A stretch of DNA of 64,000 bases from a bacterium (GTDB taxonomy: Bacteria > Electryoneota > RPQS01), in contig JAHDVH010000002.1 of the NCBI GenBank assembly GCA_023382385.1, forward strand, positions 448,219 to 512,218, given 5' to 3'. A program made the position numbers and the translations under genes. The notes beneath the pieces were generated by a model. It was given only the letters and a program-made list of their open reading frames with translations, did no database searches and was not told where the DNA came from. How positions within the stretch are numbered: the first letter of the stretch is position 1; every line of letters starts with the position of its first letter. Below, piece after piece: positions 2,512 through 61,959 of this stretch.

Positions 2512-4815
2512 CTACTGCTCTAACTTTTCTAACGAGTTCACCCAATCAAGAACATAGTTGTAGCTCTCATCAAACTTTTCAAATCCTGACTCAATCGGCG
2601 CATGGTGTGCCCACGCATTTCTAAAGGCACGCACACGACTTATGGCCGCGTTGAGCTCATCGTATTTGTGTTCAGTACTCTTGAAACACGGTAACACTTT
2701 AGGCTCACGGTTAGGACTAGCAACTCGATTCCGTATAGCGAATGCTAAGTCACTAAAGTTCGCAAAGTCCGCGAAGCTCTGCGCACAGATCTTCACACCA
2801 ATGGCGCGCATGTTAGTCTTAAACATTTTTTCCCTCTCTTGAATTTCACCCCAATTCCGCTCCGACCAGAGTTCAGAAGATTCAAGAACCTTTGGATTAT
2901 CAGAGAAGAGGTCCCGAAGTTTGGCTCTCATAGCTCGCTCGAGGGTTGCGAGTCTCTCGCCAATGTCTACCATTCTCACGTTGTGATCGCTAAAGACTTT
3001 AGTCGGGAGTAGACCAGAAAAGCTTCCGATTTCCACAAACTTCTCTTCCATATAATGCTGCGATTCAATCAGGCGCTGAAAGACTGTTAAGCTGAAGTCA
3101 TGTCCAAGCCCCTTGAGGCCCTCAAGTGTTTTGACGATATGGGGCACAGATAACTCGGGCCAATGATCATAGATTCGCCGTCGCAGTTCCTTACTAACTC
3201 CGTGTTCCAACGCGCGCGCTCCAGCCTTCCTTCCCAATTCTCTGTAGCGCGGGTGCATACTCAAAATACTGCGAGGAGTAGTTGAAAGCGACTGCGCCGT
3301 GCATGCATTTAGAATCTGGGTCAACGGGTAGAACTTGTCTAGAAAAGCTCCCAACTCATATGAAAGAGCACTACTCTCTTCCTTCTGGTCAGGCAAATAT
3401 CTCAAGACTGCTTCAATGGGATCTTCGGGTACTTGCAAAACCGCTGTTTCAAAGTCGGCCAGTATTGCATCCTCTTCGCCTTGACTCTTTGCTTCAGATA
3501 ATTCTTGAACATTTCTAAATATATCTATCAGCGCGCCAAAAGTGTCGACATGTCTAGCAAGCTCTGGCTTTGAGCGTACTGCCACTAATAGACTCTCCAA
3601 CGACTCACGAATCACGGCGAGATCCGATTTGTATGAAACTTTGGTCTCATTTGATAGGACACTTCTTGCAATACTTTGTACTTGTCCCAAGAGAAAATCT
3701 TCAACTGTTATCTCAAGTACGAATCCGTATTCTGCAAGATAACTCAGCGGATCACTGATTAGAGAACTCGAATGTACAGGATAGAGAATATACGCAGCTA
3801 CGCTTCTTGCTGCAGCACAGAGAATAGTCTCTGTAAAGCGTTCTGGATGTAAAAGGTAGCAAAGGCGCGCAATAAGAACGGCTTCAGCAACATTCAGGGA
3901 AGTGGTCAAAAGAGTGTCATCTATTTCAAATTCGTTTATTCGATCAAGAGTTGCTAACCAATCCCAAGTATGATAAGAGTCAAGCTCATCAAAAGGTGCT
4001 TCTTCGATCATATGAAAAGAATAGAGAAGCAAATGAACAAATTGGTCGTGAGCATTCCATAGGCCATACATTGATATTTCGCAATCGAGGCTTAGCAGAT
4101 CTACTGGTGCTTTTTCTTGTTCATCGCCAATCATATCATGCGAGACAAGCGTGTGAAGATTTGGGAAATTATGAAGGAGTTTCCATTCCATGATTAATAC
4201 TTCGACTACGCGCTGTCGGAATGTGCCAAGGAAATCCCATTCTTCGCGTAATCTATAGATTGGGTAATAAGTTTCCGGCGTTTCTATTTCAAGGAGTTCG
4301 CAGACCGCTTCATTAACCTTCGCCTTTGCCACATGCTGTACTTCTTCGTCAGACAACTCTGGCCATTTCTGTTTGATGTCCGGAAGTAATTTCTGTCTTT
4401 CCCGCTCAATGAACTCTACGGGATTGCCCTCGAGTTTCTCGAGCTTCTTCAGACTAATTCTTGCCTTGGCAAGAATCCACTCAAACAGATACTTGTCGGC
4501 TGTATCGAGTTCCTTCAACACAAATGCACAGAGCCTTGCCCTATCCATGTCCTTATATGAAAGCGCGCTCTTGTCTTGCTTCATGTACCAACGCAGATAC
4601 TGCCGGACGGATTGTTCGTGTCGCAGATTGAGAGCGGGCGGGATCATGCTTGGGGCTCGATGGCGACATACCTCACAAAGTCCGCCTTTCTGCATGGGGT
4701 TCAGGACGGGAGTGCCTTTCTGTTGAATGATCAAGATATCATCCAACGAAATTCTCATGGTTTCCCGTCCGCATGCAGGACATCTTAAGAAAGTGTAGTT
4801 ATTCTTGTCTATCAT
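2512..4815 (-). CDS. Large protein with N-terminal zinc ribbon and C-terminal HEPN-like RX4H motif
   Basis: Not a family I can name. The ATG at 4815 is preferred to the TTG at 4830; no strong ribosome-binding site is visible. The 767-residue product opens with a two-knuckle zinc ribbon (CPAC at 12-15, CEVC at 47-50). A long helical middle without ATPase motifs follows. The C-terminus has an RNAWAHH segment (R732, H737) in a predicted helical bundle, matching the RX4-6H signature of HEPN ribonucleases and Swt1-type HEPN domains. The gene is clearly AT-richer than the exporter and glycosyltransferases around it, which suggests transfer. It sits alone inside a glycan locus with a dispersed repeat 86 bases upstream of its start. 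Inference: a solitary defence or RNA-cleaving protein. The HEPN reading is tentative. Confidence 0.7.
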   Translation of the reverse strand: MIDKNNYTFLRCPACGRETMRISLDDILIIQQKGTPVLNPMQKGGLCEVCRHRAPSMIPPALNLRHEQSVRQYLRWYMKQDKSALSYKDMDRARLCAFVLKELDTADKYLFEWILAKARISLKKLEKLEGNPVEFIERERQKLLPDIKQKWPELSDEEVQHVAKAKVNEAVCELLEIETPETYYPIYRLREEWDFLGTFRQRVVEVLIMEWKLLHNFPNLHTLVSHDMIGDEQEKAPVDLLSLDCEISMYGLWNAHDQFVHLLLYSFHMIEEAPFDELDSYHTWDWLATLDRINEFEIDDTLLTTSLNVAEAVLIARLCYLLHPERFTETILCAAARSVAAYILYPVHSSSLISDPLSYLAEYGFVLEITVEDFLLGQVQSIARSVLSNETKVSYKSDLAVIRESLESLLVAVRSKPELARHVDTFGALIDIFRNVQELSEAKSQGEEDAILADFETAVLQVPEDPIEAVLRYLPDQKEESSALSYELGAFLDKFYPLTQILNACTAQSLSTTPRSILSMHPRYRELGRKAGARALEHGVSKELRRRIYDHWPELSVPHIVKTLEGLKGLGHDFSLTVFQRLIESQHYMEEKFVEIGSFSGLLPTKVFSDHNVRMVDIGERLATLERAMRAKLRDLFSDNPKVLESSELWSERNWGEIQEREKMFKTNMRAIGVKICAQSFADFANFSDLAFAIRNRVASPNREPKVLPCFKSTEHKYDELNAAISRVRAFRNAWAHHAPIESGFEKFDESYNYVLDWVNSLEKLEQ

Positions 4816-4900
4816 GCTATCAGGTGTCAAGTTTGGAGGGTGACGTTTTGAAACTGAAGGAGTCTTGACTCACAGTCTAAATTGGTTCGATCTATGGAGG

Positions 4901-28382: not shown

Positions 28383-29693
28383 CTATCCCTCGACGGACAA
28401 CACGAACGGCTCTTCGAGCGCCAGACAAACCCAGCGGAGGAAGCGCGCGGCATCGGCTCCGTCAATCAGCCGATGGTCATAGGAGAGCGCGAGCGGGAGA
28501 ATGCGGCGCGGTTCGAACTCCTTGCCGTTCCAGACGGGCTTGGTCTGCGTGCGCGAGACACCGAGAATTGCGGCGTCGGGCTGATTGACAATCGGAGTGA
28601 AATTGGTGCCGCCGATACCGCCGAGATTCGAGATGGTGAAGACGCTGCCCTGCATTTCGTCGAGTGCGAGTTTTCGGTCACGGGCGCGCGCGGCGAGCGT
28701 CGTAAGTTCTATGGAGAGCTCAGTGAGATTTTTCTTGTCCACGTCGCGCACAACGGGCACGAGCAGACCGCGTTCGGTGTCGACGGCAACGCCGATGTGA
28801 AAGTAGTCCTTGAAGACGACTTCTTCAGAGGCGAAATCGAGACTGCCGCGGAAGTTCGGAAAGACTTTCAACGCGGCGGCGGAAATTTTCAAGAGAATCG
28901 CAGTCATGGTCAGCGCGCCGCCGGCTTTTTCGACACGCGGAGCGAACTGTTTGCGCAGCGCTTCAAGCTGCGTGACGTCGGCTTCATCGAACTGCGTGAC
29001 CTGCGGGCCGGTACTCCAGTCGCGCGAGAGTTTTGTGGCGGTGGCGCGGCGCACATTGGACATCGGTTCGCGGTGTGTGTCGCCCCACTTCGTGAAGTCG
29101 GGCAGCGGCTGCGGTGCGAGCGAGCCGACTGCGGCTCCGCCTGTCTGCGGAATTTTGGCAGACGAGCGCACGTAGAGCTTGACGTCGTCAATCAGAATTC
29201 TTCCGCCCGGACCGGTGCCGGAGACTTGCCCGAGGTCGACGCCGAGTTCGCGCGCGAATTTGCGCACGGCGGGACCGGCGGGCAGCACGCGGTCGTCCTT
29301 GACGTGTCCGTTGGTTTCGGGTTTAGCCGTGAACGGCTGCGCGGCAGGTGCGGGTTCCGTCTTGACCGCAATCGGTTCAGGTTTTTGCACGGGCGCGGGC
29401 GTCGCTGCCGGTTGAGGCGGAGCAGGTACGGCAACCGGAGCGGAAGTCTGCGCCTGCACGGCTCCTTCGATCTGCATCACGACCTGATCGATCGCGACCT
29501 TGTCGCCCTGCTTAATCAGAATCTTCGTGACTTTACCTTCGACATCCGACGGCACTTCCATCACGGCCTTGTCGGTTTCGAGTTCGAAGAGCGGCTGCTC
29601 TTTTTTGACGGCGTCGCCTTCCTTGACGAGCAGCTTGACGACGTCGCCTTTGGTGATGCCGTCTCCGAGGAATGGTATTTTGAAATCAGGCAT
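28383..29693 (-). CDS. aceF: Dihydrolipoamide acetyltransferase (E2) of pyruvate dehydrogenase
   Basis: 436 residues. It has a single lipoyl domain with the lipoylation Lys in ELETDKAVMEVPSD (about residue 42), then a Pro/Ala-rich linker (about 80-130). A peripheral subunit-binding domain follows (PAGPAVRKFARELGVDLGQV), and a catalytic core ends with SYDHRLIDGADAARFL (catalytic His, Asp). It transfers acetyl groups to CoA within the pyruvate dehydrogenase complex. Its E1 gene lies upstream but is separated by a 2.2-kb foreign-looking gene. No E3 gene is in the window. Confidence 0.95.
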   Translation of the reverse strand: MPDFKIPFLGDGITKGDVVKLLVKEGDAVKKEQPLFELETDKAVMEVPSDVEGKVTKILIKQGDKVAIDQVVMQIEGAVQAQTSAPVAVPAPPQPAATPAPVQKPEPIAVKTEPAPAAQPFTAKPETNGHVKDDRVLPAGPAVRKFARELGVDLGQVSGTGPGGRILIDDVKLYVRSSAKIPQTGGAAVGSLAPQPLPDFTKWGDTHREPMSNVRRATATKLSRDWSTGPQVTQFDEADVTQLEALRKQFAPRVEKAGGALTMTAILLKISAAALKVFPNFRGSLDFASEEVVFKDYFHIGVAVDTERGLLVPVVRDVDKKNLTELSIELTTLAARARDRKLALDEMQGSVFTISNLGGIGGTNFTPIVNQPDAAILGVSRTQTKPVWNGKEFEPRRILPLALSYDHRLIDGADAARFLRWVCLALEEPFVLSVEG

Positions 29694-29726
29694 GGTTTAG
29701 TTCGCCTTGATGTTATTCTTGTTATG

Positions 29727-29785
29727 TCGTCATTCTGAACGAAGGCTTGGCGTAGTGAAGAATCCCTCAGGAATTCTGCGCGTGC
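29727..29785. repeat. Dispersed repeat copy between the inserted gene and aceF
   Basis: TCGTCATTCTGAACGAAG, then GCTTGGCGTAGTGAAGAATCCC. It closely matches the inverted right arm at 60561-60600 (which contains CACGCCAAGCCTTCATTCAG). It fills most of the 112 bases between the nuclease-methyltransferase gene and aceF. Confidence 0.75.
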
Positions 29786-29805: not shown

Positions 29806-32049
29806 TCAACGAAGGTCCAGCTCAAGATTTCCATCCTGGCGGAGTCTCCACTGGTTTTCTCCAACATGTTCACCAACCGCTGCGAGCTCGTTAAGTATCG
29901 TTTGATTCTCGGGGGTGATTCCGTTCTTCAACAGAGGCATGATGTAGAGAATTACCTCATCAGTTGTGGGACTCTTTCGTTCAGCACCACACCTTCTTAA
30001 GTAGGAAATCAAGAAGTATCTTATTCGGAGCTCAACGGGTAACTGCGCTCTAAACTTCTTTTCCTTCCTCATGTGAAACTTATCTTCGTCTTCATGATAC
30101 TCGAAGTTATCCATAAGGAGAGGTGTCAAGTCTTTATACTCTTTGCTAAGAATATCAAGAAAACCCATTTCAAGTCCCTTCATGATCAACTCATCATTTA
30201 TGTCTTCAAGTCGAGCCCCATTCTTGCTCGCTATGACAGACTCAATGGTCTCGATGATTAGGTCATAAACGCTCGTACCTTGTACAATTCTAGCAATACG
30301 TCGTGGATTCCTGACTTTCCTAAAATTGATGATTAGCTGCCCTTGTAACACCGAGAACGGGTTTTGCCGTTTCTTGAAACTCGCAGCCCCATTGCCTTGC
30401 GCAACAGTGCCAACGTACTCAAATCCACAAGCTTCAGCAGTTTCGAGAATAAAATGCCAATATTTGGGATCCTTGTGGGCAAATACGAAACTCATCCACC
30501 TGTCGTACTTCATGACGCGATACATTTCACGTATGGCGGCACCAAGAGAATCCTTGTATGATTCAACCGTGTGGTTTCTCGACCCATCTTCAATCGTTTC
30601 GCGCTTGTAGTCGCTTTCGCTTACCGGAAGTCCAAGCCATTCATTCCACATGACGGACAAATCAAGGTAATTGATTTTTGACCCATACGGTGGGTCAGTG
30701 TAAACATAATCTATCGATTCCGAATTCACGGAATCAAGTAATGCGGCGTCCCCTTTCAATACTACCGACTCCCTTAGGCTCTTCTCGTCTATTGCCGCAT
30801 TTAACTCTTTTTGCGCTGCAATGATCTTCTTAATTTTGGTCCGAAAAACACCAGCAACGTTGAGATGAACCTCAGCGGGTGCGAGTCTGTATCGAAAATA
30901 GCGGAATGGGCCGTTATCGCCGCCGCCTTCGGCTCTCGCTTTTGAGGGATGATAAGTTCTGTTAACCTTGCTAATCGTACCTGAGAAGGCCAACAACAAG
31001 ACTTTGCGAATATCCTTATCTCTGGTCTTTAGAATCTCTTTCCGCAATATGGCAAGTTCGCACAATTGTTGGGTTGTAAATAGCTCCTCGATATGTTCAA
31101 CATCAGAGGTAGGAGGTAGCAACGTTCCTTTGGGGTACTTAAGTGTCTTGAGCAACGCTTGAGCGTGACGCTTCGATTTGGGGCGTTGGGATTCAAATCG
31201 TTCGAGTAGTCTTTCCACGGACGACGTCAACTCGTGAGGCACAACAATTGTCAGGAGCGACTGCACGAGGAATTGTGACATTGGATTTAAGTCAATGTGA
31301 ATTGCCTTTCGTCCGGTCACAATTGCTTCAATCGCAGTAACACCGCTTCCACCAAAAGGATCAAGCACAGTGTCGCCTGGTTGACTATAGTACTTAATGT
31401 ACTCTTGAACGACGTTCCACGCTTGTTTTGTAAAATAGCCGTGTACCCCGAAATGTCTTCTTGCTTGTTGCTTCTTCACCACGATTTCCGGTAAGAGCGA
31501 GCGTGTTGAGTAAAACTGAGAGTCTTTTTCTGATCGCTTGGTTGCTTGCGAATGTTTCACTGCCCGAGCACCAAAGGCACTTGGCGACAACAGTTCGATC
31601 ACATCATTCCAGTGCTTATCTAGATCTTTGATTCTCCAAGAATTAAGGGGTTTTACTCCTTCGCGATTCCAAACAACAAAGTCTATTCCATTTGAGATCG
31701 CATATAGATTCACATTTATTTCGGGGTGCAATGCGTAGAAGTAAGCCTGCTCTCTGTGCTTTGCTTTTGACGCCAGTTCTTTTGGCCCCTTGGCATCAAG
31801 TACCCAGGCTGGTTTCCCGTCTACCTCCATCAAGTAGTCAGGAATCGATGTCACCTTTCGACTCTTTGAACCAATCTGCACAATAGGGTGCGTGATTCGT
31901 GGATTGCGACGTACACGGGTTTTGCCCCTGTGTCCATATCCAAGCGCCTGCAATATTGGACTCAGAATAAGTTCACGAACGGACTCTTCGGTGAAGTCGT
32001 CTGCGTTAACTGAATCAAAATCAAAGTCATTCAGAGGATACGTGTTCAT
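29806..32049 (-). CDS. Fused PD-(D/E)xK nuclease and DNA methyltransferase (restriction-modification-like)
   Basis: 747 residues. Residues 1-150 look like the HsdR_N nuclease domain: E21/E22 in helix 1, PDYLMEVDG (D71), AWVLDAKG (D85, K87), then a Gln in EQAYFYALHPEI. Residues about 190-560 are an amino-methyltransferase with SAM motif DPFGGSG (230-236) placed before the catalytic motif TDPPYGSKINY (DPPY 452-455). The roughly 210 C-terminal residues may read DNA sequence. This would allow methylation and cleavage by one protein, as in Type IIG enzymes. The gene is AT-rich, starts 16 bases after the aceE stop, and splits the aceE-aceF operon. A pure modification or phage-defence role is also possible. 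Confidence 0.82.
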   Translation of the reverse strand: MNTYPLNDFDFDSVNADDFTEESVRELILSPILQALGYGHRGKTRVRRNPRITHPIVQIGSKSRKVTSIPDYLMEVDGKPAWVLDAKGPKELASKAKHREQAYFYALHPEINVNLYAISNGIDFVVWNREGVKPLNSWRIKDLDKHWNDVIELLSPSAFGARAVKHSQATKRSEKDSQFYSTRSLLPEIVVKKQQARRHFGVHGYFTKQAWNVVQEYIKYYSQPGDTVLDPFGGSGVTAIEAIVTGRKAIHIDLNPMSQFLVQSLLTIVVPHELTSSVERLLERFESQRPKSKRHAQALLKTLKYPKGTLLPPTSDVEHIEELFTTQQLCELAILRKEILKTRDKDIRKVLLLAFSGTISKVNRTYHPSKARAEGGGDNGPFRYFRYRLAPAEVHLNVAGVFRTKIKKIIAAQKELNAAIDEKSLRESVVLKGDAALLDSVNSESIDYVYTDPPYGSKINYLDLSVMWNEWLGLPVSESDYKRETIEDGSRNHTVESYKDSLGAAIREMYRVMKYDRWMSFVFAHKDPKYWHFILETAEACGFEYVGTVAQGNGAASFKKRQNPFSVLQGQLIINFRKVRNPRRIARIVQGTSVYDLIIETIESVIASKNGARLEDINDELIMKGLEMGFLDILSKEYKDLTPLLMDNFEYHEDEDKFHMRKEKKFRAQLPVELRIRYFLISYLRRCGAERKSPTTDEVILYIMPLLKNGITPENQTILNELAAVGEHVGENQWRLRQDGNLELDLR

Positions 32050-32065: not shown

Positions 32066-34801
32066 CTATGACACCCAGGGGTCGCGTTTGTCGCCGGTGA
32101 TGTTGAACTCTTTCATGTGCGCGGCGACGACTTCGGGTTTGACTTTTCCTTGCAGCGCGAGTTTACTGAGCGCGGCCTGCACGATGTAGGGTGCGCTGAC
32201 TTCGAAGAAATCGCGGAGTGCGGTGCGGCTTTCGCTCCGGCCGTAGCCGTCGGTGCCGAGAGAGTGGAATTCGCCGGGGACGTAGCTGCGCACAAGGTCG
32301 GGCAGCGTTTTCATGTAGTCGGAAGCCGCGACGGTCACATCCGCGCCGTCCTTTAGGGCTTGCGTGATGAACGGCACGCGCGGCGGCTCGGTCGGATTCA
32401 GCATGTTGTGCCGCTCGCAGGCCAGCGCATCGGTGTAGAGGGTCTTGTAGCTGGTGACGCTGTAGACATCCGCAGCGACTCCGTATTTCTCGGACAGCAG
32501 CTTCTGCGCTTCGAGCACGGAGAGCATGATGGAACCGGAGCCGAACAGATTGACGCGCGGCCGCGCCTTCTTGTCCTCGGCTTTCTTATAGAGGTAGATT
32601 CCCTTCAGCACGCCTGCTTCAACGCCTTTCGGCATTTCGGGATGCGTGTAGTTCTCATTCTGGATGGTCAGGTAGTAGAAGATGTCCTCCTGCTCCTGAT
32701 ACATGCGGCGCAGACCGTCGCGGATGATGAGCGCGAGTTCGTAGCCGAAGGCGATATCATAGACCATGAGATTGGGCACAGGCAGCGTCAAAACGGGACT
32801 GTGGCCGTCTTCGTGCTGCAGCCCTTCGCCGTTCAGAGTCGTGCGTCCGGCGGTCGCTCCCATCATGAAGCCTTTGCAACGGATGTCGCCGGCAGCCCAG
32901 ACGAGGTCGCCGATACGCTGCGGGCCGAACATCGAGTAGAAGGTGAAGAAGGGGACGGTGTTCAGTCCGTGCGTGGCGTAAGCGGTTCCCGCGGCGACAA
33001 AGCTCGACATGGAACCTGCTTCGGTGATGCCTTCTTCGAGAATCTGTCCGTCGGTGGCTTCTTTATAATAGAGAAGGGACGCGCGGTCCACAGGTTCGTA
33101 GAGCTGTCCGATGCTGGAATAGATGCCGACCTGCCGGAACAGCGCTTCCATGCCGAAGGTGCGCGCTTCATCGGGAACGATGGGGACGACGAGTTTGCCC
33201 CAAATGTCGTCTTTCAGGAGTTTGGCCAAAATGCGTACAAAGACCATCGTGGTGGAGACTTCGCGGTCGCCGCTGCTCTCGAAGAACTCCTGCCAGAACT
33301 CTTTTTTCGGCGGTTCCAGCGGCTGGACTTCCACTCTGCGCTGGGGCATTGGTCCGCCGAGTTTTTCGCGGCGCTCTTTGATGTAGACCATCTCGGGGCT
33401 GTCCTGCGGCGGCTTGTAGAACGGCGTGGCGGCAATGGCTTCATCGGAAATGGGAATGCCGAAGCGCGTGCGGAAGTGCATCAACTCGCTGTCATTGAGC
33501 TTTTTCTGTTGATGCGTGATATTGCGGCCCTCTCCGGCTTCACCAAGACCGTAGCCTTTGATAGTCTTGGCCAGAATCACGGTGGGCTGTCCCTTGTGTT
33601 CGACGGCGGCTTTGAATGCGGCATAGACTTTTTCGGGGTCGTGTCCGCCGCGCCGCATCTTGGAGAGCTGTTCGTCCGAGAGATGGTCGACCAGTTTGAG
33701 CAGTTCGGGGTCCGCTCCGAAGAAGTGCTGGCGGATATAGGCACCGGACTCGACGGTGTATTTCTGGTAGTCGCCGTCGACGGCCTCGCCCATCCGTCTG
33801 ACAAGTTTGCCGTGCGTGTCTTCGGAGAGCAGGAAATCCCAGTCATTGCCCCAGATCACTTTGATGACGTTCCAGCCGGCACCTCGGAAGATGGTTTCGA
33901 GTTCCTGAATGATTTTGCCGTTGCCGCGAACCGGGCCGTCAAGCCGCTGCAGATTGCAGTTGACGACGAAGATGAGGTTGTCGAGTTTTTCGCGTCCGGC
34001 CAGACCGATTGCGCCGAGCGCTTCGGGTTCATCGGTTTCGCCGTCACCGAGGAAGGCCCAGACGTGCGAATCGGTATGCGGTTTGAGTTGACGGTTTTCG
34101 AGATAGCGATTAAAGCGGGCCTGATAGATGGCCATAATCGGGCCGAGTCCCATCGACACGGTGGGGAACTGCCAGAAGTTGGGCATCAGCCATGGATGCG
34201 GATAGGAGCTGAGTCCGCCTTCGGGTCGAAGTTCATGTCGGAAATTGCGCAGTTGCTCAATTGAGAGTCGTCCTTCGAGGAAGGCGCGCGCGTAGATGCC
34301 GGGGGACGCATGCCCTTGGAAGAAGATCTGGTCCGCTCCGTCGGGGTGCTCCGGTCCTTTAAAGAAATGGTTGAAACCGATTTCGAAAAGGGTGGCGGAC
34401 GACGCATAGGTGGAGATATGTCCGCCGATTCCGTCTTCGGCGCGATTGGCCCGCACGACCATTGCCATAGCGTTCCAGCGAATGATGCTCTTGATGCGGC
34501 GCTCGATTTCGCGGTTTCCGGGAAATGCGGGCTGTCGGTCGGCGGGAATCGTATTGACGTAGGGAGTGGTCAGGGGGAACGGCGCAGAGACGCCGCGCTT
34601 TTGGGCATGAATCTGCAGCCAATGCATTAGCTCTCGCACACGCTCGGGGCCGCCATGCCGATATTCGTATTCAAGCGAGTCAATCCACTCTTGAATTTCG
34701 ATGTCTTCAGGCTGGGCCAGTCCGCGGTATGGATTGTAGGCGGAACCGTCGTGGATATTCTCCAGAGTCATGGCCGGTTCAGCCGGAGTGGGAACACTCA
34801 T
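32066..34801 (-). CDS. aceE: Pyruvate dehydrogenase E1, homodimeric type
   Basis: 911 residues, close to the 887 of E. coli AceE and of the same single-chain type (RHGGPERVRELMHWLQ, then GGHISTYASSATLFEIGFNH). The ThDP motif is GDGETDEPEALGAIGLAGRE followed by NLIFVVNCNLQRLDGPVRGN. It decarboxylates pyruvate and acetylates the E2 lipoyl arm. The ATG at 34801 is preferred because AAAGGA lies 7 bases upstream; the frame is open further to 35179, but that part is not protein-like. A good promoter lies 77-105 bases upstream. Confidence 0.96.
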   Translation of the reverse strand: MSVPTPAEPAMTLENIHDGSAYNPYRGLAQPEDIEIQEWIDSLEYEYRHGGPERVRELMHWLQIHAQKRGVSAPFPLTTPYVNTIPADRQPAFPGNREIERRIKSIIRWNAMAMVVRANRAEDGIGGHISTYASSATLFEIGFNHFFKGPEHPDGADQIFFQGHASPGIYARAFLEGRLSIEQLRNFRHELRPEGGLSSYPHPWLMPNFWQFPTVSMGLGPIMAIYQARFNRYLENRQLKPHTDSHVWAFLGDGETDEPEALGAIGLAGREKLDNLIFVVNCNLQRLDGPVRGNGKIIQELETIFRGAGWNVIKVIWGNDWDFLLSEDTHGKLVRRMGEAVDGDYQKYTVESGAYIRQHFFGADPELLKLVDHLSDEQLSKMRRGGHDPEKVYAAFKAAVEHKGQPTVILAKTIKGYGLGEAGEGRNITHQQKKLNDSELMHFRTRFGIPISDEAIAATPFYKPPQDSPEMVYIKERREKLGGPMPQRRVEVQPLEPPKKEFWQEFFESSGDREVSTTMVFVRILAKLLKDDIWGKLVVPIVPDEARTFGMEALFRQVGIYSSIGQLYEPVDRASLLYYKEATDGQILEEGITEAGSMSSFVAAGTAYATHGLNTVPFFTFYSMFGPQRIGDLVWAAGDIRCKGFMMGATAGRTTLNGEGLQHEDGHSPVLTLPVPNLMVYDIAFGYELALIIRDGLRRMYQEQEDIFYYLTIQNENYTHPEMPKGVEAGVLKGIYLYKKAEDKKARPRVNLFGSGSIMLSVLEAQKLLSEKYGVAADVYSVTSYKTLYTDALACERHNMLNPTEPPRVPFITQALKDGADVTVAASDYMKTLPDLVRSYVPGEFHSLGTDGYGRSESRTALRDFFEVSAPYIVQAALSKLALQGKVKPEVVAAHMKEFNITGDKRDPWVS

Positions 34802-34877
34802 GTTGGGTCCTTTCATAACTTTAATGCCACCGTAGCGGTTAGCCATCTGGGGCGTAATCTCGCTTGGGACAGCCCCT

Positions 34878-34906
34878 AATATACCCATTTTCAGCTCGAG
34901 ATTCAA
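34878..34906 (-). promoter_or_regulatory. Promoter of the pyruvate dehydrogenase operon
   Basis: On the minus strand TTGAAT (34906-34901), 17 bases, TATATT (34883-34878). Start expected near 34871, so a leader of about 70 bases to the aceE ATG. The same promoter would read the inserted nuclease-methyltransferase gene and aceF. Confidence 0.65.
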
Positions 34907-35452
34907 ACCACGGGAGTCAGGGCATGGTTCCACGGGTGCTACGGAATCGATTTTGGTCGGGCTTTTGTCGACGCCTACTCCACATATCGGCTGGTGAATT
35001 GAACTCGATTTTAGCAGGACGTATTCGCGGGAAGAGGCATTCCCCACTGAAAATTTTTGAATTGCTCGCGCGCGCAACGGAGAATTTTCGCATTGCGCAG
35101 CAAGCATTTCACTTGTATGCGCGTGCCGAAGCAGGGGAGCTTCGCAGTCCGTTCGCCCGAATATCCGGTGCGGCTTCATGCCGATTGCAGAGCAGCGCGA
35201 GTCCCGCAGAAGTTGCGGAATCCGCCCTGCGAACCGACACTCAACTTACTCTGTTTTAATAACTTCTCTGCCTGCGTGCGTACGACGGCTCGGTCGCAGT
35301 GACTCACGCGCGGAGCACTTTGCAAGCGGGGGGCTTGCACTCGGCGAAAGCTCCGCGGGTGTCTTCAGCAGTCTGCAAAACGAGCGTTGAGGCGGGAGAG
35401 CATGGACGAAATCGGGAATGAATTTCAGTCTTATGCGGAGCGCTCGACCCTC
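34907..35452. other. Gene-free stretch between divergent aceE and the SWIB gene
   Basis: About 550 bases. Frames are open here by composition, but none has a start with a ribosome-binding site or protein-like sequence. No repeat or RNA was recognised. Confidence 0.5.
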
Positions 35453-61100: not shown

Positions 61101-61129
61101 TTGACAAAGCGTACGTTTGAACCTATATT
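61101..61129 (+). promoter_or_regulatory. Promoter of the DUF5343-like gene
   Basis: TTGACA (61101-61106), 17 bases, TATATT (61124-61129), the best promoter in the window; start near 61136, leader of about 35 bases. Confidence 0.75.
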
Positions 61130-61170
61130 CAGAGAATTTCGGTTGGTCAGATAAAATAAAGGAGAAGGCA

Positions 61171-61959
61171 ATGTCGAACGATTCGCTTCCACTCGAGCTT
61201 GGTGGTGTTAAAAAGCAACGGGAAAGGTCACGTAACCATCCAGGCATCAACCTTGAGCGCGCTCTTGAGTTCTTGGCGGAGTTCAAGGTAAAAGTTGGAT
61301 CCAAAGCAACTTCGCGAAACTCGATTGCACACGTTTTTGGAGTTTCGCCATCGTCGGGGGCATTTTCTACAAAAATAGCAGCTTGCTATCAATACAATCT
61401 ACTCGATGGGCGTGGAGAAGGTATTGCTATAACAGCGCTCGGCAAGCGTATGCTACATCCACTGTCGCCAGAAGATAAACAAGCCGCAATCATGGAGGCA
61501 TTTCGTTCACCTGACTTGTACAGCCAGCTCATTGCTGACTATGCAGGTGATAAGTTGCCAACCGAACTCGCAAATCTATTGTTTCACAACTACGATATTT
61601 CAGAATCTGCGAAGGAAAATGCGGCGAGGTGCTTTGTTGAGTCTGCAAGGTTCGCTGGTTACTTGGATGCCAACGACAGACTAATTGCCCAAGACACGAA
61701 GGCCGTAAGCATTGTCTCTAAGGACTCTGAGCAATATCAAGATGCCGTTATTGTTGACGAGCGAAATGAACCAACTGAATCGAGTCGGGTTTCTCATAGT
61801 GGTCAGAATATTACCCTCGCTGTGACAGCGGGTAGAAAAGTAACATTACTTCTGCCAGACGAATTAACGGAGGCGGACATTAAGATTCTGAAAGCCCAAC
61901 TCGATGTAATTGGTCTACAGATCCAGCTTAACAAGGACTTGTCATCGTTGACTGAGTAG
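61171..61959 (+). CDS. DUF5343-like protein
   Basis: 262 residues from the ATG at 61171 with GGAG 8 bases upstream. The N-terminal about 150 residues resemble winged-helix-containing DUF5343 proteins (SPSSGAFSTKIAACYQYNLL, then GIAITALGKRMLHPLSPEDK). The C-terminal part has a linker rich in Asp/Glu/Ser (QYQDAVIVDERNEPTESSRV) and a short strand-helix tail (KVTLLLPDELTEADIKILKA) seen in some bacterial DNA-associated or antiphage operons. The gene is AT-rich with its own strong promoter. Function is unknown; the DUF assignment is by resemblance. Confidence 0.6.
   Translation: MSNDSLPLELGGVKKQRERSRNHPGINLERALEFLAEFKVKVGSKATSRNSIAHVFGVSPSSGAFSTKIAACYQYNLLDGRGEGIAITALGKRMLHPLSPEDKQAAIMEAFRSPDLYSQLIADYAGDKLPTELANLLFHNYDISESAKENAARCFVESARFAGYLDANDRLIAQDTKAVSIVSKDSEQYQDAVIVDERNEPTESSRVSHSGQNITLAVTAGRKVTLLLPDELTEADIKILKAQLDVIGLQIQLNKDLSSLTE

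What the first reader, a model, noticed from the sequence alone, without database searches (positions are those of the whole stretch)
29806..32049. Nuclease-methyltransferase gene wedged between aceE and aceF
Seen: an AT-rich 747-codon gene starts 16 bases after the aceE stop and ends 112 bases before aceF, all on one strand and behind one promoter. It combines an HsdR_N-like PD-(D/E)xK region (D71, D85xK87) with a methyltransferase whose SAM motif (230-236) precedes DPPY (452-455). Known: Type IIG enzymes combine both activities in one chain. Inference: the gene rides on the essential pyruvate dehydrogenase transcript, which would give steady expression and make its loss by recombination costly. 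I know of no described R-M gene in this position.
Basis: partly seen in the sequence, partly recalled or inferred. Interest (0 to 1): 0.75.

Follow-up and report, generated by a model that had tools for sequence, protein, structure and literature searches.

The report
Horizontally acquired one-piece restriction-modification enzyme gene
A single foreign gene that joins a DNA-cutting domain, a DNA-marking domain and a swappable target reader has landed between two pyruvate dehydrogenase genes; it belongs to a widespread, little-described family, but the landing site itself looks ordinary.

Summary
An intact 747-codon gene lies on the minus strand between aceE and aceF (gaps 16 and 112 nt; GC 45%, GC3 47% against about 70% in neighbours). 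The N-terminus is a PD-(D/E)xK nuclease (D71, D85, K87, Q101xxxY105). The methyltransferase carries DPFGGSG before DPPY. In 54 full-length relatives from about ten phyla these residues are essentially invariant.
New here: close relatives, including a tandem pair 93% identical, differ sharply at residues about 361-400. A specificity region therefore lies between the SAM motif and DPPY, as in Dam-like (alpha-class) enzymes, and it diversifies. This supports a true one-chain restriction-modification enzyme that works like Type IIG/IIC but is not a classical gamma-class Type IIG.
The 'riding an essential operon' inference is not supported. Across the family, neighbour orientation and spacing equal those of other genes in the same loci. 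In Endomicrobium a copy between ruvA and ruvB is decaying in place. The aceE-aceF gap is permissive in this host family; one relative carries a TcmP/radical-SAM pair there. No cutting or methylation activity has been shown.

The parts
29806..32049 (-). single-chain restriction-modification gene, 747 aa
31570..32049 (-). residues 1-160: PD-(D/E)xK nuclease domain, HsdR/RecB-like
   Evidence: AlphaFold pLDDT 90.9; Foldseek hits 9y1l, SSO0001, DrdV, EcoR124I HsdR; weak Pfam HSDR_N
31837..31839 (-). D71 of the nuclease motif, invariant in 55/55
31789..31797 (-). D85-A86-K87 (residue 85: D 51/55, E 4/55; K87 55/55)
31735..31749 (-). Q101xxxY105, QxxxY motif of HsdR/RecB-type nucleases, invariant
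   Evidence: meaning of QxxxY from general knowledge
31342..31362 (-). DPFGGSG (230-236), SAM-binding motif I
30835..30969 (-). residues 361-405: core of the inferred target-recognition region
   Evidence: identity 0.53 in 361-400 against about 0.97 in the flanks between tandem copies; dips in most other close pairs
30685..30696 (-). DPPY (452-455), catalytic motif IV of an amino-methyltransferase
29809..30309 (-). residues 581-747: conserved C-terminal helical region, function unknown
32066..35179 (-). aceE, pyruvate dehydrogenase E1; listed start probably too far upstream, since relatives match only from about residue 121-160
28383..29693 (-). aceF, dihydrolipoamide acetyltransferase E2
29725..29777 (.). 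intergenic repeat between the gene and aceF; a second copy (87% identical) lies around window 60562 on the other strand, a shorter third match elsewhere in the genome

Best explanation
The gene encodes a one-chain restriction-modification enzyme. The N-terminal PD-(D/E)xK domain would cut DNA lacking the mark. The central amino-methyltransferase (motif I, then an inserted target-recognition region, then DPPY; alpha-class order) would mark the host's own sites, most likely with N6-methyladenine. One target-reading region (about 281-440, core 361-405) would serve both activities, so that swapping it changes both together. The gene came by horizontal transfer as a bare cassette and settled in a permissive interval between aceE and aceF, probably expressed by read-through from aceE. 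Shown: gene, position, composition, invariant catalytic residues, nuclease fold prediction, localised specificity-type divergence, patchy cross-phylum spread. Inferred: cleavage, methylation, the base marked, the target, expression.
For: Catalytic residues of both active sites are essentially invariant in 55 sequences. Nuclease fold: model pLDDT 90.9, with matches to DrdV and EcoR124I HsdR. The full model's best PDB match is E. coli Dam, an alpha-class enzyme, and 222 residues separate motif I from DPPY. Target-recognition region: two tandem Thiospirillum copies are 93% identical overall and 0.53 in 361-400; most of the closest pairs show the same dip, while a Capnocytophaga pair (0.98) and a Prevotellaceae pair (0.85) share the region. 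Transfer: Prevotellaceae against Treponema 86% identical; phylum labels scattered on the tree; the gene has lower GC than its flanks in 45 of 49 loci; absent from the other family members. Empty sites: aceE-aceF about 50 nt in G003 and 195 nt in G007; ruvA-ruvB 2-132 nt in most Endomicrobium genomes, with the gene in G093.
Against: No biochemistry or methylome. Foldseek matches for the nuclease domain are weak (best E 2e-3), and the whole-protein match to Dam has low TM-score (0.16-0.20 of the query). The window protein is on a long branch (1.3) and departs from near-invariant positions at 34 of 278 sites, so it may be under relaxed constraint. No clean same-genus empty site: G001's contig ends in repeats next to aceE.
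Confidence: 0.75

Rival explanations
1. A methyltransferase whose nuclease domain is no longer used for restriction: an epigenetic or anti-restriction enzyme retained for methylation alone.
For: The methyltransferase core (451-580) is the most conserved part; homologues keep the core with a different terminus.
Against: D71, D85/E, K87, Q101 and Y105 of the nuclease site are as invariant as the methyltransferase motifs, which is not expected if cutting were dispensable.
Confidence: 0.12
2. A defence effector resembling BREX type 3 PglXI or other DUF1156-type methyltransferases that needs partner proteins.
For: PADLOC's best single hit is PglXI, 2.2e-39 over 316-578; mad2 model matched by 34 of 54 members.
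Against: No BREX or MADS partner was seen to recur beside the gene in the contexts inspected (neighbours read by eye, not all searched); the window gene is flanked by aceE and aceF only.
Confidence: 0.08
3. The position is adaptive: insertion into an essential operon is selected because it gives steady expression and hinders loss.
For: Several homologues also lie in tight housekeeping operons: ruvA/ruvB, hisS/speA, the ftsI-murE cluster, lepB/WbqC (neighbour names mostly by inspection).
Against: Same rate of co-directional tight placement as background genes (21% against 22%); copy decaying in place at ruvA-ruvB; the aceE-aceF interval is loose in this host family.
Confidence: 0.05

Closest known systems
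Type IIG / IIC enzymes of the gamma class (BpuSI, MmeI, DrdV, Eco57I)
   Same: One chain; N-terminal PD-(D/E)xK domain; methyltransferase and cutting share one target reader; diversification through the specificity region. Foldseek links the N-terminal domain to DrdV.
   Different: Those have a gamma-class NPPY/F/W methyltransferase and a C-terminal or separate specificity module (PMC3874165, PMC4081073). Here DPPY, alpha-type order, specificity region inside the methyltransferase, and only about 750 aa.
BtgZI (GCGATG 10/14), the Type IIC exception
   Same: Described as a combined enzyme with an alpha-class methyltransferase (PMC4081073).
   Different: BtgZI has the methyltransferase first and the nuclease at the C-terminus; the window protein has the reverse order. 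Sequences were not compared.
E. coli Dam and other alpha-class adenine methyltransferases
   Same: Best fold match of the full model; motif I - recognition region - DPPY order.
   Different: Dam has no nuclease domain and is far smaller.
PglXI (BREX type 3) / DUF1156 methyltransferases
   Same: Similar core around DPPY.
   Different: Part of multi-gene systems; the match does not cover the nuclease domain; no such partners here.

Membership tests
Type IIC (combined) restriction-modification enzymes | nuclease and methyltransferase in one polypeptide | tested here: met
   intact ORF with both sets of invariant motifs; the activities themselves not tested
Type IIG, classical | N-terminal PD-(D/E)xK cleavage domain | tested here: met
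Type IIG, classical | gamma-class methyltransferase (NPPY/F/W) with C-terminal or separate specificity module | tested here: not met
   DPPY (not NPPY/F/W) in the family, and a variable specificity-like region at 281-440 between motif I and DPPY
Type IIG, classical | cleavage stimulated by or dependent on AdoMet, at fixed distance from the site | not testable with these tools
   biochemical
alpha-class amino-methyltransferases | order motif I - target-recognition region - motif IV | tested here: met
BREX type 3 (PglXI) | presence of BREX partner genes | tested here: not met
   neighbours in window and relatives

The most novel reading that the evidence does not exclude
A widespread, previously undescribed class of one-chain restriction-modification enzymes (alpha-class methyltransferase with an N-terminal HsdR-like nuclease and an internal swappable target region) that travels between phyla as a bare single gene, sometimes settling inside tight housekeeping operons and in one case carrying a poly-G tract that could switch the nuclease off.
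Probability: 0.4. Interest if true: 0.55.

Novelty: new variant of a known kind. Interest (0 to 1): 0.4.

Why it matters
Combined restriction-modification enzymes are almost all gamma-class; the review read here names only one alpha-class exception, with the opposite domain order. A large family with the N-terminal nuclease order and a compact internal target region gives a second design for coupling cutting and marking to one reader. The tandem copies that differ mainly in about 50 residues make a direct specificity-swap experiment possible. The controls also show that a striking operon position need not mean selection.

Tried and rejected
Operon-riding as a family strategy: rejected by a background comparison. 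Plasmid or phage carrier near the window gene: the best plasmid and phage matches to the whole protein cover at most 63% of it, mostly under 32% identity; one Nostoc plasmid protein matches only the nuclease domain, at 46%. Two full-length copies sit in viral contigs, but nothing mobile flanks the window gene. Same-genus empty site: not resolvable, contig ends in repeats. Direct repeats bracketing the window gene: none found. Relatives of the same phylum with a C-terminal extension: conserved EQID..FD and FEIE suggest a nuclease at the other end, but no solved-structure match was found, so left open. Nostoc plasmid nuclease-only protein: no methyltransferase annotated beside it.

Full report
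Observation. aceE and aceF are secure. The gene is compositionally foreign: GC 0.455, GC3 0.47, against GC3 0.69-0.72 for aceE, aceF and two nearby large genes. It is single-copy in its 2.9 Mb genome.

Relatives. No homologue above threshold was found in the other ten genomes of the host family. Several genomes in the same phylum hold homologues of the methyltransferase part; the three read closely (L055, L056, L058) lack the N-terminal nuclease and have a C-terminal extension. A 50%-identical full-length homologue lies in Endomicrobiellum. A scan of GTDB species genomes found many more at 38-55% identity, across Bacteroidota, Ignavibacteriota, Spirochaetota, Cyanobacteriota, Pseudomonadota, Elusimicrobiota, Fibrobacterota, Planctomycetota and others. 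On the tree phylum labels are scattered: Ignavibacteriota needs 4 changes for 4 rows, Spirochaetota 3 for 3. Contamination of bins and paralogues are caveats. A Prevotellaceae and a Treponema copy are 86% identical.

Protein anatomy. In 55 aligned sequences D71, A86, K87, Q101, D230, G234, G236, D452, P454 and Y455 are invariant, and residue 85 is D (51) or E (4). The N-terminal model is confident. Its structural matches include HsdR, Cas4-like SSO0001 and DrdV at modest E-values. The full model matches E. coli Dam best.

Target-recognition region. Restriction enzymes diversify at the specificity domain. In the tandem Thiospirillum pair, sequence is nearly identical up to about residue 360 and again after about 415, and only 0.53 identical in 361-400. 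Most of the closest pairs behave likewise, with values of 0.35-0.50 where flanks are 0.86-0.96, and a few pairs share the block (0.85-0.98). This places a recognition region between motif I and DPPY. That is the alpha-class layout, and it argues for restriction-modification rather than a fixed-specificity regulatory methylase.

Position. I tested whether the family favours co-directional tight placement. With 43 family copies and 155 other genes of at least 250 aa in the same loci, both neighbours co-directional and both gaps <=100 nt: 21% against 22% (crude ORF calling, no gene finder). Striking cases exist (ruvA-gene-ruvB, hisS-gene-speA, ftsI cluster-gene-murE overlapping by 4 nt), but they fit random placement in gene-dense genomes. 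In the Endomicrobiellum genus the ruvA-ruvB gap is 2-132 nt in most genomes. It holds the intact gene in G093 and an eroded copy, missing residues 1-261 and the DPPY region, in G406.

The aceE-aceF interval. In the host family it is about 50 nt in G003 and 195 nt in G007. It holds a small-molecule-type methyltransferase gene in G010, remnants of that gene and a 106-aa ORF in G008, about 7.8 kb in G002, and unrelated low-GC DNA beside aceF in G006. In G005 a TcmP gene (TIGR04474, 4.5e-50) and a DUF5131 radical-SAM gene follow aceE up to the contig end. In another family of the phylum it is short. So the site is permissive rather than unique, though contig ends limit several comparisons.

Literature. 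Type IIG enzymes are described as gamma-class with an N-terminal cleavage domain (PMC3874165). Type IIC is broader, with BtgZI as a named alpha-class exception of opposite order (PMC4081073). Complete restriction-modification systems are often transferred autonomously (PMC4176335), in line with the bare-gene insertion seen here. Only open-access papers were searched, so prior description of this family cannot be excluded.

Verdict. A real, probably functional one-chain restriction-modification enzyme of an under-described variant, acquired horizontally. The operon placement is not evidence of a strategy.

Noticed in passing
L165:660-680: In a Treponema relative a run of about 14 G lies in the linker between nuclease and methyltransferase and the gene is split there into 182- and 562-aa ORFs: a possible phase-variable switch, or an assembly error (single MAG contig).
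   Followed up: partly
L129:5977-10549: Two tandem copies of the gene after an ettA-like gene in Thiospirillum jenense, 93% identical, differing mainly in the inferred target-recognition region.
   Followed up: yes
L051:2-1048: TcmP and a DUF5131 radical-SAM gene start right after aceE in G005 of the same family.
   Followed up: partly
L047:1-484: Tandem repeat of roughly 120 bases directly after aceE in the same-genus genome G001, ending the contig.
   Followed up: no
L055:9462-11816: Same methyltransferase core with a C-terminal extension bearing conserved EQID..FD and FEIE, possibly a nuclease at the opposite end; its start overlaps the end of an ispG-like gene by 4 nt.
   Followed up: partly
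window 2512-4830 (-) and 61117-61959 (+): Two further AT-rich (about 45% GC) ORFs of unknown function, 772 and 280 aa, in the window.
   Followed up: no
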